64,000 nt of DNA, from the NCBI RefSeq assembly GCF_018802605.1, contig NZ_CP069161.1, forward strand, positions 3,720,001 through 3,784,000. Direction: 5' to 3'. The translations under genes were made by a program, and so were the position numbers. Positions 28,140-64,000 of the stretch are shown piece after piece. Source of the DNA: Paludibacterium paludis (lineage in GTDB: Bacteria; Pseudomonadota; Gammaproteobacteria; Burkholderiales; Chromobacteriaceae). The notes under the pieces are model-generated. The model did no database searches. It saw only the letters and a program-made list of their open reading frames with translations, and was not told the origin of the DNA. Numbering within the stretch: the first letter of the stretch is position 1; every line of letters starts with the position of its first letter.

Positions 28140-28682
28140 TCAGGCGAAATCGCTCAGGTACTTCGACAAGAGATCGGCGACCGCCCGGTCATCCAGCCCG
28201 CGCGATTTGAGTTCATCCCCCAGTTCACCGACATTCACGCTGCCCAACGTCCGGTTTTCGCCCAACGGCCGCTCATCCCGGCGAATGAAGAAATCGTATT
28301 TCCTGTTTACCGTTTCCTTCACTTCGTAATGCATCACCTCGTCAACATGGTTATCCTGGGTGAAGGTCAGCACCACGGGCTGCATAGCGTACAACTCGTC
28401 GGGACGGACATAATCCGACGCGCAGATGATTACCCGATCGCCCTTCTGGCAGGTGCGTGCCGCGGCGCCATTCAGGATGCAGCAGCGCGATCCGGGCTCG
28501 CCATAAATCACATAGGTGGAAATCCGGGCGCCGCTGTCCTTGTTCCAGATCTCGACAAATTCCATCGGGAAAATGCCGGCCTTTTCGCATTGTTCGGGGT
28601 CGAGCGTGATCGAGCCGTGATAATCCAGCTCCGCTCCCGTAATCGTGATGCCATGCAGTTTTGCGCGAACAACTTTAATCAC
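28140..28682 (-). CDS. panD: Pyruvoyl-dependent aspartate 1-decarboxylase (PanD family), C-terminally extended
   Basis: PanD-type decarboxylases make beta-alanine from L-aspartate with a self-formed pyruvoyl group. This one (180 aa) has the cleavage site Gly23-Ser24 in [11 protein letters not shown], the catalytic [11 protein letters not shown] region and the LNGAAAR motif. The start is GTG at 28682 after AAGGATTCAGA. Usual PanD is about 125 aa; this one has some 55 extra C-terminal residues of unknown role. It is the last gene on the minus strand of the biosynthetic cluster, 111 nt after the thioesterase, so it probably supplies beta-alanine to the assembly line, not only to pantothenate. 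That link is inferred from position and from adenylation-domain codes. Confidence 0.85.
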
Positions 28683-28793
28683 TCTGAATCCTTTCCATAA
28701 AAAACCCGGTTCCCGTTCTGTTGCTCTTTTCCCTCGCCGGGAAAACCGGAAAATCATCCCGTGCGGTGAACACTCCGCCGCGCCGTCCTTCGT

Positions 28794-29561
28794 TCACCAT
28801 GCCAGCAAATCCTCGCAGCGATGCGCGATTTGCCGGCGCAGAGCCGACATCAATGCGGTCCGGGCCGGACCGTCGTTGAAGTAAAAATGCCCCCCCGGAA
28901 AACTCGCCGTCCCCTGCCAGCGACGGCTGTACCCTTGCCATTGCTCAAGCTCGTCCGGCGTGAAATCCGGCTCGTCGTCGCCGCCGACCACGAACAGCGG
29001 CGACGCCAGACATGCCTCCCGGCCGAAGCGATAGCCGTCCACCAATGCAAAATCATTGCGCAGCACCGGCATGAACACCTGCAGCAACTCCCGGCTCTGT
29101 TCGAGTTCAGCGGGCAACCCGCCATAGCGGCGCACCTCGTCGAGAAAGGCGGCCTCCGGCAGCGCGTGCCGCTGCCGTCCCGCCTCCGGCGATAAATGCG
29201 GCGGCTCGCGTCCGGAAAGCGTCACCAGGGCGAGGCGCTCCGGTTTTCCCCGCTCTTCCATCTGGCACGCCATCTCATACGCCAGCAAGGCCCCCATGCT
29301 GTGACCGAACAGCGCGAAAGGCCGGTCGTCGGCGTTCAGCACCTCATCCAGCAGATGCCCCGCCAGAACCGTCGCATCGTTGAGCAACGGCTCCCCGAAC
29401 CGTTTGCCGCGGCCGGGCAGCTCAAGCGGCCAGAGCCCCAGCCAATCGGGCAGCAGCGCATCCCAGCCGCGATACATTTCGGCGCTTCCGCCAGCGCATG
29501 GCAGGCAGTACAGGCGCACCGGCGCCGGCTTGGGCGACGGAATGGCGAACACGTCAGACAT
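28794..29561 (-). CDS. Type II thioesterase of the NRPS-PKS cluster
   Basis: This alpha/beta-hydrolase thioesterase (255 aa) belongs to the GrsT/YbtT group that removes wrongly loaded acyl groups from carrier proteins. The nucleophile serine is Ser88 in FGHSMGALLAYE. An acidic residue lies in VVGGDDEPDF, and the histidine is in FPGGHFYFND. The start at 29561 is set by a strong AGGAGGTCTGCC site and overlaps the decarboxylase by 8 nt. No type I thioesterase domain is fused to any NRPS in view, so product release must be done by a protein outside the window or in another way. Confidence 0.87.
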   Translation of the reverse strand: MSDVFAIPSPKPAPVRLYCLPCAGGSAEMYRGWDALLPDWLGLWPLELPGRGKRFGEPLLNDATVLAGHLLDEVLNADDRPFALFGHSMGALLAYEMACQMEERGKPERLALVTLSGREPPHLSPEAGRQRHALPEAAFLDEVRRYGGLPAELEQSRELLQVFMPVLRNDFALVDGYRFGREACLASPLFVVGGDDEPDFTPDELEQWQGYSRRWQGTASFPGGHFYFNDGPARTALMSALRRQIAHRCEDLLAW

Positions 29562-31092
29562 GGCAGACCTCCTGCGTCGCGGCCAGTTCGGCATCGATAC
29601 GCCGGCCGGTCCGGATCACGTCATCCAGCAAACGGTCCAGCAGGGCGTCCTCGCACAACGGGTTGTACATCACCGCCCGCAGCATCACGCGCGCGGGCCC
29701 GGTCTCGCCCGGCAAAACCCGCTCGGTGCGCGACAGCAACGCGCCTTCCGCTTCGCGCAATCGCTTGTGCAGCAGGACATTGCGCCGGTTGATCTCCTTT
29801 TCCCGCTCGGGGCCGGCCTCCCTTTCCCGGCATGCCGCGCCCAGATAGCGGAACACCACCAGATTGCTCACCGGCTCCAGCAGCAACTCCAGTTCGGGCC
29901 GCGCCGCGATACGCCCGGCCAGCGACCGCGCTCTCTCGAAACTTGCGTCGATCAAGCGCCGGTAACCGGTGCGGCCGATCAGATGCATCGCCGCGTGCAA
30001 GTACAGCGCCGAGGCGGGACGGGACCCCTCGAGCGTGAAACGCCCGCTGTCCCACGAACCGGGCCGCACCGCGTACGGCGCCGAGGCCATCACCGCGCGG
30101 GACACTCCACCGTCCCGGTACAGCAACACCCCGCATCCGAGCGGTGTCAGCAACTGCTTGTGCGCATCCAGCGTCACCGTGTCCGCTTCCCCGATGCCGG
30201 CGAGCAGAGGCGCATGACGCCCGGACAACAGAAAGGGGCCGCCCCAGGCGGCATCCACATGAAAATGCGCCCCCTCGGCCCGGGCACGCTCGGCCAGCGC
30301 GCCAAGCGGATCGACACTGCCAAAATCGGTGCCCCCCGCCACGCCGACAATCGCCAGCACCTTGCGCCGCTCACGCCGGCATTGCGCCAAGAGCGCGTCC
30401 AGCAAATCGATCCGCATCGCACCCGCGCCATCCACGTCGACCTTGAGCAACGCCCCTTTGGCCAAGCCCATAAGGTCCGCCGCCTTGTCGAAGGAGTAAT
30501 GCATCAGTCGTGAACCGATGATGACCGCGTCGTCATAGCCCTGATCACGCAATTGCCGCCACCAGGCCCCGGCTCCCGGCAGCGCGCGCTTGCGTGCGCA
30601 CCACATCGCGCCGATGTTGGCCAGCGTGCCGCCGGTGGCGATCACGCCGGCGATGCGTCCGGGATCGTCGCGCAGGGCGCGGTAGACCGCGTCGCTATCG
30701 TTGAAGACCATCCGGTGCAACACCGCCAGCACCCGCCGCTCGAGCAGCGTCAGCGCTCCGGACGACTCGGTTTTCATCATGTTTTGATTGAGCGCCGTCA
30801 CCAGCCGCGCCAGCTGCGGCATGAATCCCGGCAACGGCGAGGTCATGTGACCGAGGCAATCGGGCCGGTGCATGCGGGCCGAGTGCTCGAGCCCCTCGTC
30901 CGCCAGCACCTCCAGATAGTCATCGGCGCTCAGCGGGCGATCGGGGAACTCCACGTCGCCGACCGGCGCCGCGCGCGTCACCGGGATCGCTGGCCGGCCG
31001 GCACGATGCAAGGCAATCAGCTGATCGACGCGCGATGCCCACTCGCGTTCGCTCGACGCGTCCCACATCATGAAATCCGCTGTCTCAGTCAT
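29554..31092 (-). CDS. PLP-dependent decarboxylase, PanP-like (probable aspartate decarboxylase)
   Basis: This group II amino-acid decarboxylase (512 aa) has the PLP lysine in LDAHKQLLTPLGCGVLL, which resembles the HKQL motif of PanP, the PLP-dependent aspartate decarboxylase of vibrios. Other family motifs are the glycine-rich ATGGTLANIGAMW and VDAAWGGPFLLS. The start overlaps the NRPS stop (ATGA) with GGAGGGAAG upstream. Alternatives are diaminobutyrate or glutamate decarboxylases. Beta-alanine supply fits best with the NRPS codes and the nearby panD. Two unrelated enzymes for the same product in one operon would be unusual. Confidence 0.75.
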   Translation of the reverse strand: MTETADFMMWDASSEREWASRVDQLIALHRAGRPAIPVTRAAPVGDVEFPDRPLSADDYLEVLADEGLEHSARMHRPDCLGHMTSPLPGFMPQLARLVTALNQNMMKTESSGALTLLERRVLAVLHRMVFNDSDAVYRALRDDPGRIAGVIATGGTLANIGAMWCARKRALPGAGAWWRQLRDQGYDDAVIIGSRLMHYSFDKAADLMGLAKGALLKVDVDGAGAMRIDLLDALLAQCRRERRKVLAIVGVAGGTDFGSVDPLGALAERARAEGAHFHVDAAWGGPFLLSGRHAPLLAGIGEADTVTLDAHKQLLTPLGCGVLLYRDGGVSRAVMASAPYAVRPGSWDSGRFTLEGSRPASALYLHAAMHLIGRTGYRRLIDASFERARSLAGRIAARPELELLLEPVSNLVVFRYLGAACREREAGPEREKEINRRNVLLHKRLREAEGALLSRTERVLPGETGPARVMLRAVMYNPLCEDALLDRLLDDVIRTGRRIDAELAATQEVCHV

Positions 31093-34000
31093 TCGCTTCC
31101 CTCCTTCCTGACAAAACGCTGCTTGCGCGCGCTCTGATGTTCTCTTCGCGGAACCGGCGCCTCGAACGGCGCGCCGGCTTCCGCCGTTACGTCCCCCGCC
31201 AGGCGCCGCGCGAGCTCACTGAGCGAACTGAACTGGAACAGCTCGGTCAGGGCCAGGCCGGCCGACGGGAAAGCGCGGGTCAGCACGGCATGGACGCTGG
31301 CCAGCGAGAGCGAGTTGAGTCCGATCTCGTACAGTCCGCGGCGCGGATCGATGCTGCCCGGATCACAACCGGCCAGAGGCGCGATCAGGACGGCAAGCTG
31401 CCGCTCCCGTTCGCTCGCGGCCGGCGCCGGATCCGACGAGCGGGCGGACAGCGAAGCCAGCAGCCGTGCGCGGTCGACCTTGCCGTTGGGCAATCGGGGC
31501 AGGGTGACCGGCGTTTCGAAACGGGTCGGCACCATATAGGCCGGCAATCGCAGCAAAAGCGCCGAACGCACCCGCGACACACCCTCGCCATCCATGCCTT
31601 CCAGCCAGGCGACCAGCTGCAGGCCACCGGCCGGATCGGGCACGGCCAGCACCAGGCATTCCGTGCCGGAGAGCTGGCGCAACTGACGGCCCACCTCGTC
31701 CAGCTCAACCCGGTTGCCGCGAATTTTCACGAGATCGTCGCGGCGTCCCTCGTGAATCAGCATCCCGTCATCCCGCCAGCGTCCCCAGTCGCCCATAGGG
31801 AATTCCGGATCGCCGTCCCCGAGCGCTTCTACACGGTTCTTCCCATTCAGATACCCGGCGAACACATGGTCGCCCGCCACGTGAATCTGCCCGCTGAGGC
31901 CCGGCGCCACCGCCTGCCCCCAGCGATCGCGCAACACGATGCGGCAACCGGGCAAGGGCCGGCCCAGCACCACCTGGCTACGGTCGCCCTGTCCTTCGCG
32001 CGGCCACGCATGCGCCGTGACATCGGCCACTTCCGAACTGCCATAGCAATTGACGAACACCAGCTCCGGCACTATCCGGTACAGCGCATCCAGTTCCTCC
32101 ACCCGCGGCGCCTCGCCGCTGCTGAGCAACAGCCGCAGCGAGCGCCAGCGGGCAAGCCATCCCGGAACCTGAAGCCAGGCGCGCATCAGCGCGGGCACGA
32201 TCACCATCCGCGTCACACCCGCCTCGCACATCATCGGCAGCAAACGGCTGCTGTCGGCGGCGACACCGCCCGGCACGATCACGCAGCGGCAGCCGGCCAG
32301 CAAAGGATCGAGCACCTCCCACAAGGCATCGATGAAGTTCAGCGGGGTGCGGATGGCGCAGCAATCGCCGTCTTGCAGGGGATAGGCCGAGGCCAGCCAG
32401 TTTGTGCGGCTTTGCGCCGTCAGCCAGGTGCCGCGCACTCCCTTGGGCTGCCCGGTCGAGCCGGAGGTGAAAAGCAGGTACAGGCAATCCCGCGCCAACG
32501 GACGGCACACCACCGCCTCGCCGGGCGGCACAGCCGCCATCTCGCGCCACACCCTGCTGCGACCGGCGAAAGGTTCGGGCAGACGGTCCCGATGAGCCTC
32601 GTCGCTGATCACGAGGACCGGCCGGGCCAGTTCCAGCATGGTGGCGATGCGCGCCTCCGGATAGTCCGCGTCCAGCGGCACATACACCGCGCCGGTGAAC
32701 AGAATGGCCAGCATGACACCGATCTGAGCTGTGGAGCGCGGCAGGTACACCCCCACCGCCACCCCCGGACCGGCGCCCTCCCGGCGCAATCCTTCGGCGA
32801 GCCGCTGACTGAGCGCCAGAAGCTCGGAATAACGGGTCTGGACACCGTCCTCGACCAGTGCGCACCGCTCGCCGCCCGAACGCAGCGCGTCGTAAAGCCG
32901 TTGTGGCAAATCGATGACCGGGTCGGCCCCGCGCGGCATCGGCGCCGGCCATTGTCCCGGCCAATAGCGCAACGACACGACAGGGCGGTGAGGCTCCGCA
33001 ACAATCGATCCGAGCAAGGTGACATAGTGCTGCAGCAGACGCTGCATCCGGCTCCCATCGAACAGGCCGGTGAGGTAATTGAGCTCCAGCCACAAGCCGT
33101 CCCCCTCCGGCACCGCATACAGATCCATATCCATATGGGCCGCCCGAAGCGGGGGTCGCAAGCGCCGCAGCGTCACGCCGCCATCCAGTTCGGGCAAGGT
33201 CTCGCGCGGCTGCATGGCGAAACCGGCCTGATACAACGGATGGCGGGACGGATCGCGCTCCTGCCCGCTCAGGGCGACCAGACGCTCGAACGGATAATGC
33301 TGGTGAGCGAACGCCGCCAGGATGCGCTCGCGGTTTTGCGCGAGAAACGCGAGGAAAGACTGATCGGGAAACCACCGGGCGCGCATCACCAGATTGTTCA
33401 CGAAGCAGCCCAGCATGTCGTGGCTGGCCTCCTGCTCCCGCCCGGCAACATAGGTCCCGACCACCACCTCCTCCTGCTGCGCATAACGGCCGAGCAACAA
33501 CTGGAACGCGCTGAGCAGCACCATGAACAAGGTGGCCCCCTGCTGGCCGGCCAGGGCGTCGAGCCGGGCCACCAGTTCGCCCGGCACGGCCAGCCCGACG
33601 CTGGCGCCGGCCCAGTCCATCCGGGCCGGGCGCGGACGGTCGGTCACCAGATCCAGCACGGGCAGACCGGCCAGTTCCCCAAGCCAGAAATCGCGGGCCT
33701 CCGCCTCATCCGGCCGGGCTTGCTGCCAGTACGCGTAATCGCCATAGCGGAATTCGCCTGACGGGAGCGTCCGCCCTGCCCGCAACGCGGCATACGTTTC
33801 GGAGACTTGCCTGAGCAGCACACCGAACGACCAGCCGTCGAACACGATATGGTGAAAACTGAGCGCCAGTACATGCCAGTCCGGCGCCACGTTCAGCAGG
33901 ATGGCGCGCGCGCTGAGGCCGGAGGTCAGATCGAACCCCGCCGAGGCGAAATCGCGCAACCACGCATCAAGATCGCCCGGCGCCGGCAAGGCCTCGCGGC

Positions 34001-37000
34001 GCGTGCGCGGAGGCTCCGCATCCGGCAACAGGCAGGGCCGGCTTTCCGTCGAATCGTAAACAAAGCGGCAACGCAGCAGCTCATGACGCGCCAGCACCCG
34101 ATCCACGGCGCGGACCAGCAAGTCGGCATCCAGCGCGCCGCGCAACTGCAACAGCATCGGCAAGGCATACGCCGTGTTGCCCGGCTCGCGCTGCTCGATC
34201 AACCACAAACCGCGTTGCGACCAGGACAAGGGCGCGGCGCCCGCCGGACGCGCCGGGAACCCGACGGGTTCCGCACCACCCCCTTCCAGATTTCCGCCGT
34301 CCGGGCTACGCTCGCGCCATTGCCGCGCAAGGTCCTCCGCCATCTGGTCGAACCGGGGCGCCGCGAAAATCCGCGGCACATCCTGCTCCAGGCCGCTGCG
34401 CCGGCGGATCTCCGCGCTCAGGCGCACGGCCAGGAGGGAATCCCCCCCCAGATGGAAGAAATTGGCGCACCGGTCGGTCACCGCTTGCCCGAGCAGCTCG
34501 GACCAACGCTCGGCAAGCCACACTTCCAGCTCCCCCCGGGGAGCGATGGCCGTCCCCGCCGCGTTGCGCGGCTGCAGCGGCCGGGCCGCCAAGGCCTGGC
34601 GATCGATCTTGCCGTTGCCGCTCAGCGGCCATTCATCGCAGCGCAGCCAGAGCGACGGCACCATCGCCGCCGGCAGGGACAATGCCGCGTGCGCCCGCAA
34701 GGACTCGTCATCGGCGTCGCTCTCCACCCAGGCCAGCAATTGGGGGTGCGGCTCGTCGCGCCTTTGCACCACCGCGCGAACCACACTTGGATGGCGCTGC
34801 AGGACGGCCTCGATCTCGCCAGGCTCGATGCGGTAACCGTGCAACTTGATCTGGCTGTCGCGCCGGCCGACGAATTCGATCTCGCCGCCGGGCAAATAGC
34901 GGCCCAGATCGCCGGTCCGGTAGCTGTGCGCCTCGCGGTTCGCCAGGGGGCCGAACGATGCCTGCCCGGGCTCGGCCGGGTCGAGATACCCGGAACTCAC
35001 GCCCGCCCCTGCGCACACCATTTCTCCGGTCACCCAGTCCGGGCAGTCCTCGCCGGACTCGTCGACGATGTAATAGCGGCTGTTGGCGATCGGCCGGCCA
35101 TAAGGAATGCGGTCGCGCGAGGCGTCCTGAGCGGTCAGACGGTGACTGATGTTCCACACCGTGACTTCGGTGGGGCCTCCGACACTATGAACCTCGACGC
35201 CGGGCGCGAACCCCGCAAGACGGGTACCGATGTCGTTCGGCAGCCAATCACCGCCGAGTGTGACCCGCCTCAGACTGTCCAGCGTTTCACCCCGGGCGGC
35301 GGCGTAATCGAGCAGCATGGTCATCAGGGCCGGCACAGAATTCCAGTAAGTGACACCGAACTCTTTCATCCGCGCCAGCCAGTGGCCCGGGTCCCGCCGG
35401 CCGGACTGGCAGGGCAGCACCAGCGCCGCGCCGCGGCTGAGCGCGCCGAACAGATCGTAGACCGACATGTCGTGATGCAGGGCGGAAATGCCGAACACCC
35501 GATCGCCATCGCCAAGACGCAACCACTCGCCGTTGTGTTCGAGCAGATTCGCAAGCCCGGCTTCGCGCACCACCACGCCCTTGGGACGGCCGGTCGACCC
35601 CGAGGTATACAGCACGTAGATTTCCTTATCGGCCCGCCATGCGGGGAGTGCCGCGCTTCGTGCCGGTGGTTCGGTACGCCAGCGGGAAACCGCCAGAACC
35701 GGCGCCTCGCCAGTCCAGGCCTCCAGGGCGTCGGCGCCCAGCACCAGTCCGACCTCCGCCTGGGCGGCAATGGCGCGCTGCCGCGCGATCGGCTGTTCGA
35801 TATCCAGCGGGACATACGACCGCCCGGCCAGCACGCAGGCCAGCACGGCGATCACCTGCTCCGCGCTCTTGCCGATGCGGATGGCGACACGCCCCTCGCC
35901 TTCCCGCAATTGCGCGGCCAACGCACCGGCCCGCGCGAACAGATCGCCATAGCGGTAGGTGCGGCCGTCGGCAGCCAATGCCAGGCGGTCGGACCAACGA
36001 TCGGCCGCCTCGGTCAAGCGCTGCGCGAGCGGCACGGGAAGCCAGTCGCGCGCTGTGTCATTGACCGCCGCGCGCCGGGCCAATTGCGCGGTCGGCAACG
36101 ACACAACGCTGATCTCATCCAGAACCGCCGCGCCGCCGGGGGCGGCCAGCCTCCCGACCAGCGCCTCGAACGCGGAGAACATGTCGCCGACCATCCCCGC
36201 GGGGAATCGCGCCTCGAGGTAGTCCCAATTGATGCGCAAACCGCCGTTTTCCTGGAAATACTGGCAGTCCAGCCAGACTTGCGGGGTCTGGGTCAGGCTA
36301 TCGACCACCTCGCCCAGCAAGGCGGTATCCGCCGAGAAATTGTCCGTTCCGCCCGCCGCCAGTTCCGGCAGCGACGTGAACACCACCGGCGCCGGCGCTC
36401 GGCTGCGGCCGCCGCTCAATTGGTTGAGTTCGCGCAATACGCGCACACCGGAGACCGCATCGTGCTCCATGTCGCGCCACAGCTGCTGTTGCATGGCGGC
36501 GATTCGCTCGCCAAAACGGCTGCCCGGCTCGTGGTTCACCGCCAGCAAGGTGAACGTCGCGAATTCCCCCAGTACGGCATTGACATCCGGATGCAAAGGC
36601 TTGCGGTTGAAGCGCGGCATATTGAGCAGAAACCGCCGGCTGCCCGACCAGCGCGCCAACACCTCGGCATAGCAAGCGGCAAGCAGCGTGGCCAGCGTCA
36701 AGCCCTGATTCGCGACCAGCGCGCGCAGCGCCTGGGTACGCGATACCGGCAGCGCCATGGCGTAGCGGGCAAAGCGCGGAGAATCGGAATCCCGGAAGTC
36801 CGCGGCCAGGGGCAGGGCCGGAGCGGCGGGCAAGTCAGGCAGGCGGGCACGCCAGTAGGCTAGCGCCCGCGCATAATCCGCCCCGTGCTCCGCCTCGCGG
36901 CACGCCAGCACATAATCCCTGAAGGACAGCCCGATGGCGGGCAGCGCGCAAGACGGGTCGCGGTAGCAGGCGGCCAGCTCATTGATCAGGGTTTGCACGC

Positions 37001-50884: not shown

Positions 50885-50909
50885 CTTGTCCGGCTCATGC
50901 CCGGACACT

Positions 50910-52062: not shown

Positions 52063-52081
52063 GATATTGACTATCAATATC
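52063..52081 (+). promoter_or_regulatory. Fur box upstream of the plus-strand NRPS-PKS operon
   Basis: GATATTGACTATCAATATC is a perfect 8-bp inverted repeat with a 3-nt centre and matches the 19-bp Fur consensus at 15 positions. It lies 58 nt upstream of the NRPS start codon. Confidence 0.75.
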
Positions 52082-55100: not shown

Positions 55101-58100
55101 ACCGACCGGCGCCGGCTGACGCAATGGGCCGAGCAGCGCTGGCAAGGCAGCGGGCCGGGCGCGGTACCCGGGGACGGCATCGAACGGCGGTTGGCGGATA
55201 TCTGGAGCCGGCTGCTGGGCGCGCCGGTCAATGATGCCAACGCCAACTTTTTCGCGCTGGGCGGCGACTCGCTGATCGCCACGCGTCTTCTTCTGCAACT
55301 GGAGGAAGCGTTCGGTATCCGTCCGCCGCTGTCCATGGTGTTCACCCATGCCAGCTTGCGGGCCATGGCCAAATGGCTCGCCGAACAGGCGACGCCGACG
55401 CACGCCGACACCGCGCTGCCGCTGGCGGACCTCCGGCATCCCCCCCTGTCCTGGGCCCAGGAGCGCCTGTGGTTCATGACGCAACTGGCTCCGGACAGCC
55501 CGTTCTTCAACCTCTGCTACGGCCTGCGGCTGACAGGTCCGCTGCAGGTTGCCGCGCTCGGCCGCGCCTTCCGGCGCCTTGCCGAACGCCACGAACCGCT
55601 GCGCAGCCGTTTTCCGGCATCGGCGCCGGCCGGTACCTGCGTCATCGGCGACGCGCCGGACGACCTACCCGGCCTGACCGATCTGAGCGCGCTGGCTCAC
55701 GGCGCACAGCAAGAGCGGCTGGAGGCCTGGGCCGAGCGGGAAAAGCGCACCGGCTTCGATCTGGAAAACGGCCCGCTGTGGCGCGCCAGCCTGTTCCGCC
55801 TCGGCAAGGACAATCACACGCTGTTCTACACACTGCACCACCTCGTTTTCGACGGCTGGTCGGCCGAGCTGTTCACGCACGAACTTTTCGCGCTGTACCG
55901 CGAAGAAGCGGACGGCACACCGGCCCTGCTGCCCGACATCGGACATTACGCCGGATTCGCGCAATGGCAGCGCGACACGCCGCCCACCAAACTCGCCGCC
56001 ACCCTGGATTTCTGGCAACGCAGGCTCGAGGGCGTCCCCCCTCTGGCGCTGCCGTCCGACCGGCCCCGCCCCCCGGTGCAGCGTTTCCGCGGCGCCCTGC
56101 TGCACCATCGGCTCGACAGCGCGCTGACCCGAAGCCTGACCGATCTCTCCCGGCGCTACGACACCACACCGTTCATGATTCTGCTGTGCGCCATGCAGAT
56201 CGCCCTGGGACGGCTGGCCGGCCAGGAGCGGTTCGTCATCGGCAGCGTGGTGTCCGGACGCAGCCATCCGGCCACCGCCGCCATGATCGGCCTGTTCATC
56301 CATGCCGTGTCGCTGCGCGGCGATCTGGCCGGCTCGCCGAGTTTCGCGGAGTTGTTGCGCCGGGTGCGCGACGAATTTCTCGGCGCGCAAGCGGAGCAGC
56401 ACTATCCCCTGCAGGCGCTGGTTCAGCGGCTGAACGCGGGCGCGGACCTGAGCCGCAACCCGCTGCACCAGGTGTCCTTCACCTACCAGCCGGCCGGCTT
56501 GCCGGAAGGAACGACCGGAAACCTTTCCCTGAGCAGCCTGCCGCTGGCGCCGGACAGCACGCATATGGACCTGGAAATCCTGGCCATGCCGCATGGAGAG
56601 GAGTTGCTGCTGACATGGATCTACGCCACCGACCTCTTCGATGCGGAAAGCGTGGAACGCTTTCACCAGGCATTCGAGTGTGCGCTGCGCGCCGCGCTCG
56701 CCAACCCTCTTGCCGTCATCGATGACCTGCCCGTCGCGAGCCTGGAGGACACGCTGCGCTGGGCCTGCCTGGACGGCGGCGAGGCGCTCGAAGGCCTCGA
56801 CCCCTGGCCCCGCCTCGCCCGGATCGCGGCCAGCCGTCCCGATTCGACAGTCCTGCGCCATGACGACGGCCGCAGTTGGCGCTGGGCGGACCTGATGACC
56901 GCGACGGAACGTCTTGCCGGCTGGATCGACAAACACAGCGGGCCGGACACGCCGGTGGCGGTCCGGCTGCACCCCGGCCACGACTACACCGCGGCCATAC
57001 TGGCCGCGCTGCGATTGGGACGCGCCTGGATGCCGCTGGATCCGCGCCGCCCGGAGAGGACCGTCCGCGACATGCTCGAGCGCGCCGGCGCCGGCTGCCT
57101 GGTGACCGAGCATGCGCTGTGGGAAACCGGCATCGCCGATATGCCGCCGGTGCATTACGCCGATGCGCCGGACACCCTGATGCGGGAAACGCCGCCCGCG
57201 TACCGGCCGGCGCCGGATACCGCGCCGGCCCTGATCCAGCATACATCCGGCTCGGAAGGACAACCCAAGGCCGTGGAAATCAGCTACGGCAACCTGCGCC
57301 GGCGCCTCGCCTGGGGGCAAACGACAGCCCCGCTCGGCGAAACGGATGTCGGCTGCCTCAAGACGTCGCCGGCGTTCGTCGATGCCGTCGGCGAACTGCT
57401 GGACAGCCTGCTGGCCGGCATGACCCTTATCGTGCCGGATCCCGACCAGGCGCGCAGTCCGCTGGAACTGGCGCAACTGATGCGGCGCCATCGTCTCACC
57501 CGGCTTGTGTTGACGCCATCCCTGGCCGACGCGCTGCTCGCGGTGCCCGACGCGCGCCCCTTGCCGCTGCGCGTGCTGGTGCTCGGCGGAGAAAAGGTCG
57601 GAACGGAACTGGCGCAGCGCTGCCTCGACGCCCTGCCGGAGCGCGCCCTGCTGCTGAATTACTACGGTTCCACGGAACTGACCTCGGATGGCGCCTGGCA
57701 CGCGATTACCCGCGACGACCTCACGCGGCGGGGACGGCAGGTGCCGGTCGGCCTGCCCCTGCCCGGCAGCCGGATCTGGCTTCTTGACCGGCAGGGCCGT
57801 CTTGCGCCGCCGGGCATGGCCGGCGAGATCCATGTCAGCGGCCAGAATCTCGCCAGCGGTTACCGCGGCGACTCTGGAAGCAGCGCTACCGCGTTCCGCG
57901 AGTGGACACCCCCCGACGGACCCGCCGTCCGGCTTTACGCCACCGGCGATATCGCCACCCGCGATGCGTCGGGACGCCTGGTCTGCCTTGGCCGGCGCGA
58001 CCATCAATTGAAACTGCGCGGCATGCGCGTCGAGGCCGGAGAAATCGAGCATCACCTTCGCTCGCACCCGGCGGTCCGCGACGCGCTCATCGATGTGCAG

Positions 58101-58634
58101 GGTGAAGGCGCCGCGCAACGCCTCGTCGCTCATGTTCTTCTGCGTCAGGATGCCGCAGCCGACTGCCGCCAGTTGCGCGAACATCTGGCGCACGTCCTGC
58201 CCGCCTCGCTCTTGCCCGGTCACTGGAGTCTCGCCCATGACTGGCCCCACACGGCGACCGGCAAAGTGGACCGCCGCCGTCTGCCGCGGCACGGATTGTT
58301 CACGGCGGCGGACCGGCGGCACTTCCTTGCCGCGTCCACTCCCCTGCAGGAAACCATTGCCGGGCTGTGGCGCGGCCTGTTGAACGAGGAACGGATCGGC
58401 ATCCACGACAATTTCTTCGAAATGGGCGGCAACTCGCTGCTGCTGACCCAGGTGCAGCAGAAACTGGCGCACGCGCTGAACACGCACGTGCCGCTGACGC
58501 TGTTGTTCCGGTACCCCACGATCCACGCGCTGGCCGAACGCCTCGGCACGGATCAGGGGGCGGACGCTCCACGACAGGCCGTTCAACAGCGGGCAGCCGC
58601 GCGCCGGGCGGCGCGCGGTCATACCCGCTCTTAA
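52140..58634 (+). CDS. NRPS, Cy-A-PCP-C-A-PCP
   Basis: This two-module NRPS (2164 aa) has the same layout as the minus-strand one. Residues about 41-470 are a heterocyclization domain with DLWNIDGRS (Asp173, Asp178) and PLADMQHAYWMGR. The first A domain (about 500-995) has code residues D693, M694, F697, N736, L764, G766, V790, L798, W799, K987, close to that of the other NRPS. Its A8 motif reads QINAGGFRCDP, unusual at the start. PCP1 has Ser1044. The C domain (about 1100-1540) has HHLVFDG (1233-1239). The second A domain has AFVDAVGELL, so Val-Asp at code positions 235/236, as in beta-amino-acid activators. PCP2 has Ser2099 (MGGNSL). The ribosome site is weak (GAGATGAC). Confidence 0.92.
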   Translation: MSTATLPPSGSERLASRLKTRLQSTRAERIVIEPDPARRFRPFPLADMQHAYWMGRQTAFSHSGAIQFYTQFRCRDLDVARLEAAWNRLIARHDMLRATVGADGMQVVAPEVPYQRIERRHLAGLDADRRQALLDATRRALQDECVPLEHWPQSRVLFDELDDGHGYLHIKLDLWNIDGRSLHILFDEWVRLYLDPQADLPALTMQFCDYIDALERQTAGPRYQRSLAWWQSRLATLPPAPELPRRPGGQDTDLRFVRWQGRLAEDRFAGLNDACRRRGLSLASVMLTVYARTLAKWSASRHFTLNVPRFNRPDWHPDIGNVIGEFASFSLLEVDLRKPASFAAQAARVQADLWEALDHQDVSGVRQLRELARLQGLAEVAAMPVVFTTTPPLRESAVLTTEEIASVFGETLHRVSRTPQVLIDCQYLVDARALQFNWDAMPGAFPDGLLDTLFDAFSGQLARLADDDSAWDGDLPVPLPAGQEAARRAAERSRNVREATPAQILLARARETPAAPALIGADGTRLDYAQLASLAGALAARLAADGVRPGDRITLLLARGWRQSVALLACQWLGAVAVPIDRHAPMARLGDLLRQVEPRRVLVDPGQDPAPLHPWAMLELDAQPLPENPPAMPPAPYRADAVSCVIFTSGTTGRPKGVEIRQDALANALQWSVDEFRLNAGDTTLAITALHHDMALFDHLATFCAGAALVVPEAGRDADPRHWLALMREHRVTVWNSVPRFMEMLVMAAEAPGLPIPDSLRLALLGGDWIAPALAAGLMEALPGLGLYSVGGPTETTLWNIAHRVTPEDTRQPSIPYGKPIANCRYYVLNEQAEECPDWVAGELYCGGISLARGYLGAPELTDERFITHPRSGERLYRTGDKGLRRGDGSLMILGRTDFQINAGGFRCDPLEIESAILAHPGVRRAIALEIQPGGGAAMLAVCYQPDKTSSCDEEALRRLAAERLPAAAVPRLFLAIDDVPLTANGKTDRRRLTQWAEQRWQGSGPGAVPGDGIERRLADIWSRLLGAPVNDANANFFALGGDSLIATRLLLQLEEAFGIRPPLSMVFTHASLRAMAKWLAEQATPTHADTALPLADLRHPPLSWAQERLWFMTQLAPDSPFFNLCYGLRLTGPLQVAALGRAFRRLAERHEPLRSRFPASAPAGTCVIGDAPDDLPGLTDLSALAHGAQQERLEAWAEREKRTGFDLENGPLWRASLFRLGKDNHTLFYTLHHLVFDGWSAELFTHELFALYREEADGTPALLPDIGHYAGFAQWQRDTPPTKLAATLDFWQRRLEGVPPLALPSDRPRPPVQRFRGALLHHRLDSALTRSLTDLSRRYDTTPFMILLCAMQIALGRLAGQERFVIGSVVSGRSHPATAAMIGLFIHAVSLRGDLAGSPSFAELLRRVRDEFLGAQAEQHYPLQALVQRLNAGADLSRNPLHQVSFTYQPAGLPEGTTGNLSLSSLPLAPDSTHMDLEILAMPHGEELLLTWIYATDLFDAESVERFHQAFECALRAALANPLAVIDDLPVASLEDTLRWACLDGGEALEGLDPWPRLARIAASRPDSTVLRHDDGRSWRWADLMTATERLAGWIDKHSGPDTPVAVRLHPGHDYTAAILAALRLGRAWMPLDPRRPERTVRDMLERAGAGCLVTEHALWETGIADMPPVHYADAPDTLMRETPPAYRPAPDTAPALIQHTSGSEGQPKAVEISYGNLRRRLAWGQTTAPLGETDVGCLKTSPAFVDAVGELLDSLLAGMTLIVPDPDQARSPLELAQLMRRHRLTRLVLTPSLADALLAVPDARPLPLRVLVLGGEKVGTELAQRCLDALPERALLLNYYGSTELTSDGAWHAITRDDLTRRGRQVPVGLPLPGSRIWLLDRQGRLAPPGMAGEIHVSGQNLASGYRGDSGSSATAFREWTPPDGPAVRLYATGDIATRDASGRLVCLGRRDHQLKLRGMRVEAGEIEHHLRSHPAVRDALIDVQGEGAAQRLVAHVLLRQDAAADCRQLREHLAHVLPASLLPGHWSLAHDWPHTATGKVDRRRLPRHGLFTAADRRHFLAASTPLQETIAGLWRGLLNEERIGIHDNFFEMGGNSLLLTQVQQKLAHALNTHVPLTLLFRYPTIHALAERLGTDQGADAPRQAVQQRAAARRAARGHTRS

Positions 58635-58652
58635 AATACCGACAGGCAGATC

Positions 58653-61600
58653 ATGACTCACGCATCCACTGACATCGCCATCATCGGCGCCGCGGGACGG
58701 TTCCCCGGCGCGGACTCGGTCGCCGCGCTCTGGCGTCTGCTTCTCGAAGGCAAGGAGCCCTACCGGATCCTCGGTCCCGAACAACTGGCCGCCGCCGGCC
58801 ACGCCGAGCTCGCCCGCTCGCCGCGTTATGTGCCCCTTGCCCGGCTTCCGGACGATTACGACTGCTTCGATGCCGGCTTTTTCGGCTACTCGCCGCGCGA
58901 GGCCGCCTTCATGGATCCCCAGCAGCGTCTGCTGCTGGAGTGTGCCTGGCATGTGTTCGAGCAGGCGGGACACATTCCCGAGGACCGCGACGGCATGCGC
59001 ACCGCCGTGTTCGCCAGCGTCGGCGCCAACGGCTATCTGCCCTTGCATGCCCTCCCCCGGGTACTCGCAGGCCAAGCCGACATGCTCGATGTGCTGATCG
59101 GCAACGACAAGGATTACGCGGCCACCCGCATCGCCTACAAACTCAATCTCTCCGGGCCGGCCCTCAGTGTGCAGACGGCCTGCTCGTCATCGCTGGTCGC
59201 CGTTCACCTTGCCGTGCAGAGCCTGCTGGCGTTCGAAGCCGACCGCGCCCTGGTGGCCTCGGCCTCCCTGGCCGTACCCGCCGAAACCGGCTACCTGGCC
59301 GAAGAATCGGGTATCCGTTCACCGGACGGCCATTGCCGCCCGTTCGACGCGGACAGCAACGGCACGGTCTTCGGGTCGGGTGTCGCCGGTGTTCTGCTTC
59401 GACGCCTGGACGACGCGCTGGCCGACGGAGATACCCCGCTCGCCGTGATCCGCGCCAGCGCCGTCAACAACGATGCCGCCGCCCGTGTCGGCTTCACGGC
59501 GCCTGGACTGCAAGGACAAATCGATGTCATCGCCGAGGCGCTGCAAATGGCGGAACTGGATGCGGCCGACATCGGTTACGTGGAATGTCATGGCACCGGC
59601 ACCCAACTGGGGGATCCGGTGGAAATCGACGCGCTCTCCCAGGCTCTGCGCGCCTGCAGCCGCGCGCCACTGCCGCCCGCCCACTGCCTGGTCGGCTCGG
59701 TAAAAAGCAATATCGGCCATCTGGATGCCTGCGCCGGACTGGCCGGGCTGATCAAGACGGCCTGCAGCCTGCGCGAGGGGGTCATTCCTCCGACCCTGCA
59801 TTACCGCCGTCCCAATCCGCGCCTGGAACTGGACGCCACACCGTTCCGCGTGGTCGACCGGCGCATGCCTTGGCCGGCGGATCGGCCCCGTCTGGCCGGG
59901 GTGAGCGCCTTCGGGTTCGGCGGAACCAATGCCCATCTGATTCTCGCCGCGCCGCCGGCGCCGCCGGCAACCGGACCTGCCCGCACCCAGCATTGCCTGC
60001 CGCTGAGCGCCGCCGACGGCCCCGCCTTGCGGCGTCAGGCCGAAAATCTGGCCGACTGGCTGGATAACGATCACGGCCACGATCTGGCCGACGTCGCCTT
60101 TACCCTGCAAACCGGGAGGAAAGCCCTGTCGCACCGCGCTGTCGTGGTGGCGGCCGACATAGAGCAGGCCAGCGCCGCCCTGCGCCGGATGCGCGGCAGC
60201 GAGGCCACCCTCGACCAGCCATGGCGGGCCCTGTGGCTGTTCCCCGGACAGGGTTCCCACCATCCGGGCATGGCCGCCGCGCTATATCGCGAAGAGCCGT
60301 TGTTCCGGAGCGAACTGGAACACCTGCTCGGCCGAATGGCGGCGCACCGCCACGCACCGGCCATCCGCGCCCTGCTGCTGGACGCCGACGGCGCGACCGA
60401 CGATACCGCCATCGTTCAGCCGGCGCTGTTCGCCTTCGAAGTCGCCCTGGGGCGGTACCTTCTTGCCCTGGGCCTGGAGCCTGCCGCCTTGCTGGGGCAC
60501 AGTCTTGGCGAATTGAGCGCCGCGTGCCTGGCGGGGGTTTTCGGATCGGACGACGCCTGCGATCTGGTCTGCCTGCGCGGCGAACTGATGGCCGGCGCCG
60601 AACCTGGCGGCATGGCGGCGCTCTGGGCGGACGCCGACGACGTGCAAGCCTGGCTCGAAACGCACCACCCGGGCCTGGAAAGGGTGGTCGTCAATGCCCC
60701 CCGCTGCTGCGTCGTGGGAGGGCCCGAAAGCGCGCTCGGCGCCGCGCTCGCCGATGCGGAAAAACAGGGCTGGCCCGCGCGCAGACTGCGGGTCTCCCGG
60801 GCCTTTCACAGCCGCATGATGGAGCCGGCGCTGGCCGTCTGGCGCGAACGGCTGACGACCATCACGCTGTCGGCGCCGCGCTGGCCGATGATTTCCGCGG
60901 AGGACGGGCAGTGCCTCGATGCGCGGCGGGCCTGCGATCCCGGCTACTGGGCACGGCAATTGCGCCAGCCGGTCCGCTTCGATCTGGCCTTGCTCAGAAC
61001 ACGCGAACTGCCGCGCGCCCTGCCTCTGGAAATCGGACCGGGCGGCGGCCTGATCGGGTTTTACCGGGACACCGTGGGCGGCGAGGCGCCCGCTTTCGAG
61101 CTGTGCGGCAGCCGTCACCTTGCCGACTCCGAACGTTACCGCCATTTTCTCGGTACGCTCGGCCAACTGTGGCAAGCCGGCGCGCCGCTGGCATGGCCGG
61201 CGTTCAACCGCGACCATCTGCCACGCCGCAAGGTCGCCCTGCCCGGTTATCCCTTCGCCAGGGAACGCCATTGGCTGCCCTCCTCGCTGCCCGTTCTCGC
61301 CAAGGCGCTGGCAAACCGCGACGTACCCGCCGCCGAGCCGGCGGCGGATCCGGCCGCCGAACGGCCCGTACCGGCCGGGATACGCCACCAGCCAAGGCCT
61401 GCGCAACCGCACCCGTTCCGGGCTCCCGTTTCGGATGCGGAGCGCCTCATGGCGGCGCTGTGGCAGGACTTGCTGTTCATCGACGACATCGGCCTGGACG
61501 ATGATTTTTTCGCGCTCGGGGGCAACTCCATCCTGGCGCTGCGCCTGTGCCAGGAAGCACGCAGCCGCGGCTGGACACTGACGCCTGCCGAGGTGTTCCA

Positions 61601-61742
61601 GTCCCGCACGGTCGCCGCGTTGTGCCGGCATCTGGACGACGCGGCGGCCGCAGCGCCCCACCCGGCGCCCGCGCGCGCCGATATCGATCCGGCCGATCTG
61701 GCCGTCCTGTTGCAACGACTGGAAAACACGGAATCAGCATGA
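58653..61742 (+). CDS. Type I PKS, KS-AT-ACP
   Basis: This is a second minimal polyketide module (1029 aa). The KS has Cys177 (TACSSSL), His313 (ECHGTGT) and His355 (KSNIGHL). The AT has Ser617 (GHSLGEL) and AFHS (717-720), predicting malonyl-CoA. The ACP has Ser959 (LGGNSI). There is no ketoreductase or other modifying domain. It follows the NRPS by 18 nt and overlaps the next NRPS by 4 nt. It should extend the peptidyl chain from the preceding beta-amino acid by one acetate unit, giving a delta-amino-beta-keto acyl chain. Confidence 0.92.
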   Translation: MTHASTDIAIIGAAGRFPGADSVAALWRLLLEGKEPYRILGPEQLAAAGHAELARSPRYVPLARLPDDYDCFDAGFFGYSPREAAFMDPQQRLLLECAWHVFEQAGHIPEDRDGMRTAVFASVGANGYLPLHALPRVLAGQADMLDVLIGNDKDYAATRIAYKLNLSGPALSVQTACSSSLVAVHLAVQSLLAFEADRALVASASLAVPAETGYLAEESGIRSPDGHCRPFDADSNGTVFGSGVAGVLLRRLDDALADGDTPLAVIRASAVNNDAAARVGFTAPGLQGQIDVIAEALQMAELDAADIGYVECHGTGTQLGDPVEIDALSQALRACSRAPLPPAHCLVGSVKSNIGHLDACAGLAGLIKTACSLREGVIPPTLHYRRPNPRLELDATPFRVVDRRMPWPADRPRLAGVSAFGFGGTNAHLILAAPPAPPATGPARTQHCLPLSAADGPALRRQAENLADWLDNDHGHDLADVAFTLQTGRKALSHRAVVVAADIEQASAALRRMRGSEATLDQPWRALWLFPGQGSHHPGMAAALYREEPLFRSELEHLLGRMAAHRHAPAIRALLLDADGATDDTAIVQPALFAFEVALGRYLLALGLEPAALLGHSLGELSAACLAGVFGSDDACDLVCLRGELMAGAEPGGMAALWADADDVQAWLETHHPGLERVVVNAPRCCVVGGPESALGAALADAEKQGWPARRLRVSRAFHSRMMEPALAVWRERLTTITLSAPRWPMISAEDGQCLDARRACDPGYWARQLRQPVRFDLALLRTRELPRALPLEIGPGGGLIGFYRDTVGGEAPAFELCGSRHLADSERYRHFLGTLGQLWQAGAPLAWPAFNRDHLPRRKVALPGYPFARERHWLPSSLPVLAKALANRDVPAAEPAADPAAERPVPAGIRHQPRPAQPHPFRAPVSDAERLMAALWQDLLFIDDIGLDDDFFALGGNSILALRLCQEARSRGWTLTPAEVFQSRTVAALCRHLDDAAAAAPHPAPARADIDPADLAVLLQRLENTESA

Positions 61743-64000
61743 GTATCGATCACTCCGGCGTAGCGGACATCCTGCCCGCCACCGCTTCGCAGCAAGGCAT
61801 GCTCTATCAGGCGCTGGCCGGCAACGATCCGGGCATGTACCTCGAGCAATACGGGTTCACCGTGCGCGGCGCCGTCGACACCGAGCGCTACCGGGCCGCC
61901 TGGCAGGCCACGCTCGATTACCAGCCCGCGCTGCGCACCACCTTTCACTGGGAAGGGCTTGGCAAGGCATACCAAGTCGTGCACCGCCATCTGGTCCTGC
62001 CCTTCGAGACAGCCGACTTGAGCGGCGACGATCCGTCGCGGCAAGCCGCGCGTCTGGAGGCGCTGCGCCAGGAAAAGCGCCAGGCCGGATTCGCGCCGGA
62101 CCGGGGACCGCTATTCGCCGTCACCGTGATCCGGCTCGGACAGGAGCACTACAAGGTCTGGCTGACACTGCATCACGCACTGGCCGACGGCTGGTCGCTG
62201 TCCCTGATCCTGGCCGAAGTGGCGGAGCGCTACCGCGCGCCGGATGCGCCACGCCCGGCGGCCGTGCCGTTGCGGCATTATTGCGACTGGCTGGCGCGCC
62301 AGGACAGCGAACGCGCGCGGCAATGGTGGCGCGAACGCCTGACGGGCCGGGGACTGGCCGGCCAGGCTCCGTTGGCCGACCCGCGGGCGGGCGGCGCCAG
62401 CGTGTTCGCCGAGCAGGTCCTTGACGAAACCGACAGTGGCCGGCTGCGCGAGGGGTGCCGCCGCCAGGGCGTGACGGAAAGCACGCTATTTTGCGCGGCA
62501 TGGGCCCTGCTGATGGCGCGCTATTTGCGCCAGGAGCATGTCGTGTTCGGCTGCGTGGTGTCCACCCGGCCGCCAGGTATCGCCGGCATCGAACGGATGC
62601 TGGGACTGCTGCTGAATGTGTTGCCGGTCACCGCGACGATCGAGCCGGATCGCGCCCTGGCCGACTGGCTGCAGGGGTTCCAGCGGCAGTTGTTCGCCGA
62701 CCGCCAGTACGACTGGCTGCCCTTGCACGAGATGCAGGATCTGGCCGGCTCCGCGGCGGAAACCGCGCTGTTCGGCAGCTTGCTGGTATGGGAAAACCAG
62801 CCGGGCGCGAACATGGCCTCCTCCGGGGAAAACGGGCTGCGCGTCGAGCACGACGAAGCCTACGAACGCAACGACTATCCACTGATGCTGGCCGGTTATC
62901 CGGAACGCCGCATCCGCCTGCGACTGACATTCCGGGAGGACGCGCTCCCCGGCGAGGCCGCGCATAGCCTGCTCAGGCAGACGGCCGCCCTGATGACGAC
63001 CCTTGCAGAGCCGGGAACGCTGACCCTCGCCGATCTGGCTCCCTGCGAAGGCGTCCTGGCCCTGCCCGCCCTGCCGGGCGGCCAGGATAGCGGCCTCGTG
63101 GCGACCGATCCGTGGCAGCGCTTCACCGAGCAGGCTCGCGTCGACCCCGAGGCGCTGCAGTGGATTCAGATCAGCCCGCCCCTGTCCCTTACCCGCGGCC
63201 AGCTGCTCGCGCGTGCCCGCGCGCTCGCCGCGCGGCTGGCGCCCCGGCTGCCCGCGGACCGCACGGCGCCGCTGGCGCTGCTATTGTGGCCCGACAGCGA
63301 CTACGCGAGCGCCATTCTTGCCTCCCTGTGCCTGGGGCGCCCGTGGCTGGCGCTCGATCCGCGCAAGCCGCCGGACGGTCTGGCCGCCCTGCTCGAGCAG
63401 CATCGCCCCGCCGCCCTGCTGACGCAGCCGGCGTTGTGGCCGGATCCTTCGCGCTGGGACGGCCTGACATTGACCGATCTTGCCGCGCCCGATCCGGACC
63501 CGCCGCCGCTTGCCGACAGGCCGCCCCCCGCCCCGGACGACTGCGCCTTCATGGTCCTGACCTCCGGCTCGACCGGTGTGCCCAAATGTGTGCGACTTCC
63601 GCATCGGGCGCTCAGGCACCGTCTTGCCTGGATGGAGCAGGCCTATCCGCCAGGCCCCGACGAGCGCATGCTCCTCAAGACCTCGCCGGTTTTCGTGGAT
63701 GCGGTCTGCGAACTGCTCGGCCCGCTGCTCTGCGGCTACCCGGTGGTCTCGCCCGGGCCGGAGCCGGTGCTGGATCTGGCCGAACTGACGCGCCTCGTGT
63801 CGGACCATGCCATTACCCGCCTGGTGGTCACGCCGTCGGTGCTGGACGGTTTGCTCGCCCTGCCTGCCGAACCGCGGCCCGCCCTGCGCCTGTTGCAAGT
63901 GAGCGGCGAACGTTTCGGCGCGGAGCTGTTCGGGCGAGCCGCGCGGCGCTGGCCCCGGGCGCGCATTCTCAATGTCTACGGCTCCGCCGAAGTGATGGCC
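61739..64000 (+). CDS. NRPS, C-A..., partial (cut by window end)
   Basis: The first 754 codons are in view, and the frame is open to the last base. Residues about 10-430 are a condensation domain (ILPATASQQGMLYQAL; active site HHALADG, His145-Gly151). An A domain starts near 460, with LTSGSTGVPK at about 605-615 and the code segment TSPVFVDAVCELL, so Val-Asp at positions 235/236 as in the second A domain of the upstream NRPS. The window ends just after NVYGSAEV (core A5). The ATG overlaps the PKS stop (ATGA). The rest of the protein, and probably the release domain, lie outside. Confidence 0.9.
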   Translation, partial: MSIDHSGVADILPATASQQGMLYQALAGNDPGMYLEQYGFTVRGAVDTERYRAAWQATLDYQPALRTTFHWEGLGKAYQVVHRHLVLPFETADLSGDDPSRQAARLEALRQEKRQAGFAPDRGPLFAVTVIRLGQEHYKVWLTLHHALADGWSLSLILAEVAERYRAPDAPRPAAVPLRHYCDWLARQDSERARQWWRERLTGRGLAGQAPLADPRAGGASVFAEQVLDETDSGRLREGCRRQGVTESTLFCAAWALLMARYLRQEHVVFGCVVSTRPPGIAGIERMLGLLLNVLPVTATIEPDRALADWLQGFQRQLFADRQYDWLPLHEMQDLAGSAAETALFGSLLVWENQPGANMASSGENGLRVEHDEAYERNDYPLMLAGYPERRIRLRLTFREDALPGEAAHSLLRQTAALMTTLAEPGTLTLADLAPCEGVLALPALPGGQDSGLVATDPWQRFTEQARVDPEALQWIQISPPLSLTRGQLLARARALAARLAPRLPADRTAPLALLLWPDSDYASAILASLCLGRPWLALDPRKPPDGLAALLEQHRPAALLTQPALWPDPSRWDGLTLTDLAAPDPDPPPLADRPPPAPDDCAFMVLTSGSTGVPKCVRLPHRALRHRLAWMEQAYPPGPDERMLLKTSPVFVDAVCELLGPLLCGYPVVSPGPEPVLDLAELTRLVSDHAITRLVVTPSVLDGLLALPAEPRPALRLLQVSGERFGAELFGRAARRWPRARILNVYGSAEVMA

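What the first reader, a model, noticed from the sequence alone, without database searches (positions are those of the whole stretch)
28140..64000. Yersiniabactin-like transport and control genes joined to a different, salicylate-free assembly line
The FyuA-like receptor, tandem YbtP/YbtQ-like ABC genes, YbtX-like MFS gene, AraC regulator and external thioesterase match the yersiniabactin helper set. The biosynthetic enzymes do not. There is a fatty-acyl-AMP ligase-ACP in place of a salicyl ligase, two minimal PKS modules and at least three NRPSs with alternating heterocyclization and beta-amino-acid modules. No salicylate synthase, thiazolinyl imide reductase or methyltransferase domain is present. 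Domain order predicts acyl - malonate - (Cys-like) - beta-Ala - (Cys-like) - beta-Ala - malonate - beta-amino acid. I know no siderophore with this backbone.
Basis: partly seen in the sequence, partly recalled or inferred. Interest (0 to 1): 0.9.

Follow-up and report, generated by a model that had tools for sequence, protein, structure and literature searches.

The report
Iron-scavenger cluster with unusual ending
This bacterium carries a gene cluster, with switches typical of iron control, that looks built to make an unknown iron-grabbing molecule: its uptake genes resemble those for yersiniabactin, but its assembly line is different and its last, reductase-like part has lost the residues needed for reduction.

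Summary
The cluster is real, runs 2.1 kb past the window, and is conserved in four genomes (this one, unnamed G049 of another family, Verminephrobacter aporrectodeae At4, Cupriavidus basilensis OR16). FyuA-like receptor, IrtA/YbtP-like ABC pair, MFS, AraC, thioesterase, FAAL-ACP, two minimal PKS modules and Cy/beta-amino-acid NRPSs are confirmed; the genome has no salicylate synthase. The best Fur-box matches in the 64 kb lie at the cluster's three promoters, so an iron siderophore is very likely. In 4 of 4 clusters that domain has lost the third Rossmann Gly, the Arg after the second strand and the catalytic Lys, which 19 of 19 control R domains keep. Release is therefore probably non-reductive; a Dieckmann closure to a 3-acyl-piperidine-2,4-dione is the boldest reading (the R-type route is described as fungal in the passages I read). 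The Cy-linked A domains belong to the Cys lineage but have Gly where Cys domains have Ser, so Cys is unproven. The product is predicted, not shown.

The parts
28140..28757 (-). PanD-like (pyruvoyl) aspartate decarboxylase with C-terminal extension, Gly-Ser cleavage site kept
   Evidence: PF02261 E 3e-39; TIGR00223 105 bits, cut-off 106; orthologs in 3 of 4 clusters
28794..29594 (-). type II thioesterase
   Evidence: PF00975 E 1e-39; in 4 of 4 clusters
29554..31092 (-). PanP-like PLP decarboxylase, probable beta-alanine maker
   Evidence: PF00282; best NCBIfam TIGR03799 PanP, 396 bits, below cut-off 606; 58-61% orthologs in the other 3 clusters
31089..37538 (-). NRPS1: Cy-A-T-C-A-T (second A has a beta-Ala-like pocket)
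37535..40483 (-). PKS1: KS-AT-ACP
40504..42528 (-). fatty-acyl-AMP ligase with ACP
42528..42546 (.). Fur-box-like site upstream of FAAL, 15 of 19
42598..43965 (-). MATE exporter (in 2 of 4 clusters)
   Evidence: PF01554 E 2e-47
43980..45695 (-). ABC half-transporter, IrtB-like
45692..47452 (-). ABC half-transporter, IrtA/YbtP-like
47466..49553 (-). FyuA-like TonB-dependent receptor
49607..50908 (-). MFS transporter, RhtX/FptX-like (only in this genome's cluster)
51003..51021 (.). Fur-box-like site between the MFS gene and araC, 14 of 19
51064..51930 (+). AraC-family regulator
52063..52081 (.). Fur-box-like site upstream of NRPS2, 16 of 19
52140..58634 (+). NRPS2: Cy-A-T-C-A-T
58653..61742 (+). 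PKS2: KS-AT-ACP
61739..64000 (+). NRPS3, window part (C-A); goes on to L013:2133 (genome 3786133) with A-T and a reductase-like domain (L014:3965-5131)

Best explanation
An iron-regulated siderophore system. FAAL-ACP loads a fatty acid; PKS1 adds malonate and leaves the 3-keto group; NRPS1 adds a residue that is heterocyclised (Cys, or Thr/Ser) and then beta-alanine; NRPS2 adds a second heterocyclised residue and a beta-amino acid; PKS2 adds malonate, again unreduced; NRPS3 adds a last beta-amino acid. The PanP-like and PanD-like enzymes supply beta-alanine from aspartate. The enol of the 3-ketoacyl group beside the azoline nitrogen stands in for the phenolate-thiazoline pair of yersiniabactin. 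The terminal reductase-like domain no longer works as an NADPH reductase, so release is non-reductive, most likely a Dieckmann-type closure of the 3-ketoamide carbon on the last thioester. The FyuA-like receptor and the IrtAB/YbtPQ-like pair import the ferric complex. Shown: gene and domain content, conservation, loss of redox motifs, Fur-box-like sites. Inferred: module order, substrates, binding groups, ring closure.
For: Twelve genes (receptor, two ABC, AraC, FAAL, PKS1, NRPS1, PanP, thioesterase, NRPS2, PKS2, NRPS3) in 4 of 4 clusters. Every match of 14 or more of 19 to the Fur consensus in the window lies at three cluster promoters; also 16 of 19 in G049 and 15 of 19 in C. basilensis between receptor and araC. 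FyuA/IrtA/YbtP relatives. Beta-Ala-like pocket beside PanP-like gene, also in Oscillatoria L054; the window genome and C. basilensis have a further, shorter PanD elsewhere. PKS1 and the first half of NRPS1 share one open frame in C. basilensis, which fits PKS1 feeding NRPS1. Third Gly, Arg and Lys lost in 4 of 4 R-like domains, kept in 19 of 19 controls; long invariant runs cover the altered motifs.
Against: The R-like domain keeps the Tyr that R* domains are said to lack (PMC8949500 passage) and passes the thioester reductase cut-off (215.7 of 213.4 bits). Dieckmann activity, substrates and metal binding are untested. NRPS2 and NRPS3 beta-amino-acid pockets differ from the beta-Ala code, so the last residue may not be beta-alanine. 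V. aporrectodeae has no PanD match and no Fur-like site above shuffles between receptor and araC (11 of 19); upstream of NRPS2 the other three genomes reach only 12-13 of 19 (shuffle fractions 0.055-0.075).
Confidence: 0.45

Rival explanations
1. Same line, but the R-like domain still reduces (perhaps with NADH or with Arg in place of Lys), giving an aldehyde that closes as an imine or by Knoevenagel condensation on the 3-ketoamide (a 3-acyl-dihydropyridinone with beta-Ala).
For: Tyr and the upstream Ser are kept; family models still call it thioester reductase.
Against: Third Gly, Arg and Lys lost in 4 of 4, kept in 19 of 19 controls.
Confidence: 0.22
2. The R-like domain is inert or a holding domain, and the type II thioesterase or water releases a linear acid.
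For: A thioesterase is in 4 of 4 clusters.
Against: The domain is 57-70% identical between clusters, with long invariant runs over the altered motifs, which speaks for a retained function. Type II thioesterases usually edit (established knowledge; YbtT, recalled).
Confidence: 0.22
3. PKS1 acts several times, as recalled for the FAAL-primed iterative PKS of micacocidin, and makes an aromatic (resorcylate-like) starter, so that a phenolate is present after all.
For: FAAL-ACP start; yersiniabactin-type uptake genes.
Against: No KR and no cyclase; PKS1 has the same KS-AT-ACP make-up as PKS2. No KS phylogeny against known iterative PKSs was made.
Confidence: 0.12
4. The metallophore serves another metal (zinc, copper).
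For: Azoline ligands bind several metals (recalled for yersiniabactin).
Against: Fur-box-like sites at three promoters; receptor and ABC relatives are iron-siderophore proteins.
Confidence: 0.06

Closest known systems
Yersiniabactin system (FyuA, YbtP/Q, YbtX, YbtA, YbtT, HMWP1/2)
   Same: FyuA-like receptor, YbtP-like ABC protein, MFS, AraC, thioesterase, Cy domains, malonate inserted between NRPS modules
   Different: No salicylate synthase or aryl ligase; FAAL start; beta-amino-acid modules; two aspartate decarboxylases; R-like end; receptor and ABC proteins match IrtAB about as well
Micacocidin (recalled, not compared here)
   Same: FAAL-ACP start, Cy NRPS, yersiniabactin-like uptake
   Different: Micacocidin uses an iterative PKS with KR to make an alkylsalicylate; PKS1 here has no KR
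Bacterial thioester reductase (R) domains: MxaA 4u7w, MxcG, CAR
   Same: Sequence family and place at the end of C-A-T
   Different: Third Rossmann Gly, Arg and catalytic Lys replaced in 4 of 4
Fungal R* / Dieckmann cyclase domains (CpaA/CpaS, EqiS, TenS)
   Same: Reductase-like, redox motifs damaged, at the end of an unreduced ketide plus one amino acid
   Different: Bacterial; Tyr kept, Lys and cofactor motifs lost; beta- instead of alpha-amino acid; no direct sequence comparison made
Oscillatoria sp. HE19RPO cluster (L054)
   Same: PanP-like gene (40%), VDWVVSLAD A domain, KS-AT-ACP, Cy-A-T with Gly301, thioesterase
   Different: In the stretch held no FAAL, receptor or ABC pair was matched; ends in C-A-MT-T-R with intact redox motifs (L135); class III aminotransferase
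Fabrubactin and anachelin (recalled; search failed, paper not held)
   Same: PKS-NRPS siderophores without salicylate synthase dependence on Ybt enzymes
   Different: Not compared; domain order could not be checked here

Membership tests
yersiniabactin-type aryl-azoline siderophores | salicylate (isochorismate) synthase | tested here: not met
   PF00425 genome-wide: 2 hits, TrpE and PabB-like
yersiniabactin-type aryl-azoline siderophores | aryl-AMP ligase starter | tested here: not met
   FAAL-ACP instead; aryl ligases elsewhere in the genome not sought
yersiniabactin-type aryl-azoline siderophores | FyuA-like receptor | tested here: met
   4epa best PDB match, E 4e-38
yersiniabactin-type aryl-azoline siderophores | YbtP/YbtQ-like importer | tested here: inconclusive
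   ABC1 matches YbtP and IrtA equally; ABC2 matches IrtB, YbtQ not in the rows shown
yersiniabactin-type aryl-azoline siderophores | thiazolinyl imide reductase and MT domains | tested here: not met
   not among Pfam matches of the cluster proteins scanned; not sought elsewhere in the genome
thioester reductase (R) domains | TIGR01746 / PF07993 membership | tested here: met
   215.7 bits, cut-off 213.4; PF07993 E 4e-42
thioester reductase (R) domains | Rossmann GxxGxxG, Arg after the second strand, YxxxK | tested here: not met
   all three altered in 4 of 4; kept in 19 of 19 controls for third Gly, Arg, Lys
R* (Dieckmann) domains | R-like fold with lost reductase residues (Tyr, per PMC8949500) | tested here: inconclusive
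   other reductase residues lost, Tyr kept
R* (Dieckmann) domains | 3-ketoacyl-aminoacyl thioester as substrate | tested here: inconclusive
   module order KS-AT-ACP then C-A-T-R-like fits; the substrate itself was not observed
R* (Dieckmann) domains | Dieckmann cyclase activity | not testable with these tools
   needs protein and substrate
Fur-regulated siderophore clusters | Fur boxes at promoters | tested here: met
   three places, 14-16 of 19, the best in 64 kb; consensus recalled; weaker in V. aporrectodeae

The most novel reading that the evidence does not exclude
A bacterial siderophore family in which the terminal reductase-like domain has become a non-reductive Dieckmann cyclase acting on a 3-ketoacyl-beta-alanyl thioester, giving a six-membered 3-acyl-piperidine-2,4-dione iron-binding head, with a 3-ketoacyl-azoline as a second, phenol-free binding site; convergent with fungal R* release.
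Probability: 0.33. Interest if true: 0.82.

Novelty: new variant of a known kind. Interest (0 to 1): 0.66.

Why it matters
It predicts a siderophore without genes for the usual catechol, salicylate or hydroxamate groups in the cluster, yet served by uptake proteins of yersiniabactin/mycobactin type. If the terminal domain closes a ring, bacteria have a reductase-derived release route that the passages read here list for fungi only, and four clusters make it directly testable.

Tried and rejected
Rejected: the 42545-43855 frame as MFS; the protein read in the neighbouring frame (42598-43965) is MATE. Rejected: PanD relatives in G299 and G381 as further clusters; none of the cluster's biosynthetic proteins matched in the 40 kb around them. 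Rejected as members: L057 (no KS, FAAL or receptor among 7 ORFs scanned) and the plasmid loci L149 and L150 (by their listed annotation only). No plasmid record has NRPS2 at 60% identity or more (353 records with a match); PKS1 likewise (701 records). AlphaFold on the C. basilensis R-like domain alone failed (mean pLDDT 37.3) and is not used; no fold search was made. Papers: 0 hold 'yersiniabactin-like' and 'aspartate decarboxylase' from 2015 on; 1 holds siderophore, heterocyclization, fatty acyl-AMP ligase and beta-alanine, 3 without beta-alanine, 9 hold Verminephrobacter and siderophore, 6 hold siderophore, tetramate, Dieckmann and nonribosomal; of these only PMC8669486 was looked into (passages). 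So absence from print is weakly tested; MIBiG and most subscription papers were not available.
Full report
Setting. The window is G000:C1:3720001-3784000 of a 4.07 Mb single-contig genome. I fetched the 40 kb to its right; of these, nine ORFs of L013 (2393-11811) were scanned with Pfam besides NRPS3. The cluster runs from 28140 to 2133 bases beyond the window. To the left lie a PF02636 methyltransferase, a pteridine reductase and TtcA; to the right an LRR-kinase gene, NUDIX, SDR and LysR genes.

Gene content. Leftward: FAAL-ACP, PKS1 (KS-AT-ACP), NRPS1 (Cy-A-T-C-A-T), PanP-like decarboxylase, thioesterase, PanD-like decarboxylase; upstream of FAAL on the same strand MFS, FyuA-like receptor, two ABC half-transporters and MATE. 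Rightward: AraC, NRPS2 (Cy-A-T-C-A-T), PKS2 (KS-AT-ACP), NRPS3 (C-A-T-R-like). KS Cys, AT GHSxG and carrier Ser motifs are present in PKS1 and PKS2. PanP and PanD are below the curated NCBIfam cut-offs (396 of 606 and 105 of 106 bits), so the names are 'like'.

Conservation. A genome-contig scan with NRPS2 gave 38 loci; two carry the cluster, V. aporrectodeae At4 (58%) and C. basilensis OR16 (62%); the other 36 match at 25-39%. The scan finds only genomes that share short exact peptides, so it is not a census. G049, unnamed, of another family of the order, has all genes but the MFS (NRPS2 53%). Twelve genes are in 4 of 4 clusters; PanD in 3 of 4 (no match in the V. aporrectodeae draft), MATE in 2 of 4, MFS in 1 of 4. 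In the two drafts the cluster lies on more than one contig. Rarity: PanP relatives at 59% or more in 2 of 399 genomes of the order (3 others at 37-41%) and the same 2 of 398 of the phylum (17 others at 37-41%); none of 5 same-genus genomes has a full-length NRPS2 relative (two partial ones at 37-38% in G005). The patchy spread suggests horizontal transfer; GC is 67.5% in the cluster, 62.5% to the left.

Iron. With a recalled 19-base Fur consensus, all seven site-strand scores of 14 or more in the window fall at three places: 52063 upstream of NRPS2, 42528 upstream of FAAL, 51003 between MFS and araC. G049 (16) and C. basilensis (15) have a site between receptor and araC. Against: V. aporrectodeae has 11 of 19 there (40% of shuffles reach it), and upstream of NRPS2 the three other genomes have 12-13 of 19 (5.5-7.5% of shuffles).

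No salicylate. Two PF00425 proteins in the genome: TrpE and a PabB-like one.

Beta-alanine. NRPS1-A2 reads I/V-D-W-V-L-S-C/L, then A-D read by eye because the aligner printed the last two letters one place on; the beta-Ala code VDWV(I/V)SLAD is recalled. The PanP-like gene follows NRPS1 in 4 of 4 clusters and lies beside a VDWVVSLAD domain in Oscillatoria L054. The three cluster PanDs keep the Gly-Ser cleavage site; the window genome and C. basilensis have a further, shorter PanD elsewhere, G049 none that matched. NRPS2-A2 (VDGVVGYSD; VDGIVGYSD in C. basilensis) and NRPS3 (VDCVQSVAD or VDCVQSLAD in the three read) are beta-amino-acid-like but may take something larger than beta-alanine.

Heterocyclised residues. 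The best solved relative of NRPS2 Cy-A-T is 6lta (that it is FmoA3, taking alpha-methylserine, is recalled). Pockets: D-M-Y/P/V/A-N/S-T-G-V/T/I-V-W (NRPS1) and D-M/L-F-N-L/I-G-V/S/I-L/V-W (NRPS2): Gly301 in 8 of 8. BmdB, PchE and FmoA3 have Ser301. Among A domains with the WN[ST]xP motif in the loci then held, the 9 outside these clusters and L054 all read SGDW, the 6 from the clusters and L054 GGDW. Thr codes (recalled) combine Asn278, Ile299 and Gly301, so Thr is about as likely as Cys.

The terminal domain. By family it is a thioester reductase. I took every R-domain match outside the clusters from three searches (6, 4, 9; none dropped) as controls. The four cluster domains read GxQGFIN, CLAPG and GYLQARW. 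The third Gly, the Arg of the [VCI]R pair and the Lys of YxxxK are kept in 19 of 19 controls and lost in 4 of 4 cluster domains. Three controls have Ser for the second Gly and one has Phe for Tyr; some controls are close relatives of each other (L145, L146, L148; L141, L142). MxaA 4u7w, 8v1x, two CAR sequences and 4dqv, the five best solved relatives, also keep the three residues. Invariant runs in the cluster domains cover the altered motifs (Q13-D26, C34-G38, G170-T180). That the Arg holds the NADPH phosphate is recalled.

What is in print. R domains have a Ser/Thr-Tyr-Lys triad, R* domains lack the Tyr and do Dieckmann closure, with fungal examples (PMC8949500, passages). Of four listed tetramate release routes the R-domain one is fungal; bacterial ones use TE, TrdC-type cyclases or PyrD3/D4 (PMC9685919, passages). 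CpaA R* releases non-reductively (PMC10890092, passages). Products of a fungal line with a Dieckmann cyclase domain chelate iron, there after oxidation to N-hydroxy-pyridones (PMC8669486, passages).

Reading. An unreduced ketide next to an azoline gives an O,N pair like phenolate-thiazoline; an unreduced ketide before a beta-amino acid and a non-reducing R-like domain is set up for a six-membered Dieckmann ring. Both are inferences from domain order. I put siderophore function at about 0.9, non-reductive release (ring closure or hydrolysis) at about 0.6-0.7, Dieckmann closure to the dione at 0.33.

Noticed in passing
L013:3547-5700 (just right of the cluster): Leucine-rich-repeat plus protein-kinase protein (LRR_8, PK_Tyr_Ser-Thr).
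   Followed up: no
G000:C1 about 677-695 kb: A second large NRPS region (open frames of 4201-4470 and 2290 aa) in the same genome.
   Followed up: no
L057:9699-14087 (Cloacimonetes MAG): A PanP-like PLP decarboxylase lies inside an NRPS ORF, between the AMP-binding domain and the AMP-binding C-terminal part that begins the next ORF: a decarboxylase inserted at an adenylation domain.
   Followed up: partly
L096:7513-16846 and L040:1758-8239 (C. basilensis): PKS1 and the first half of NRPS1 share one open frame, while the second halves of NRPS1 and NRPS2 are in separate overlapping frames: real splits or draft errors.
   Followed up: no
window 28140-28757, C-terminal third: The three cluster PanD proteins share a C-terminal extension of about 60 residues that the shorter PanDs lack; two non-cluster relatives in G299 and G381 are 63-66% identical over the core.
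   Followed up: partly
L054:7229-22330 (Oscillatoria sp. HE19RPO): Distant cyanobacterial NRPS-PKS cluster with the same PanP / KS-AT-ACP / Cy-A-T(Gly301) / thioesterase set but an MT domain and an R domain with intact motifs.
   Followed up: partly
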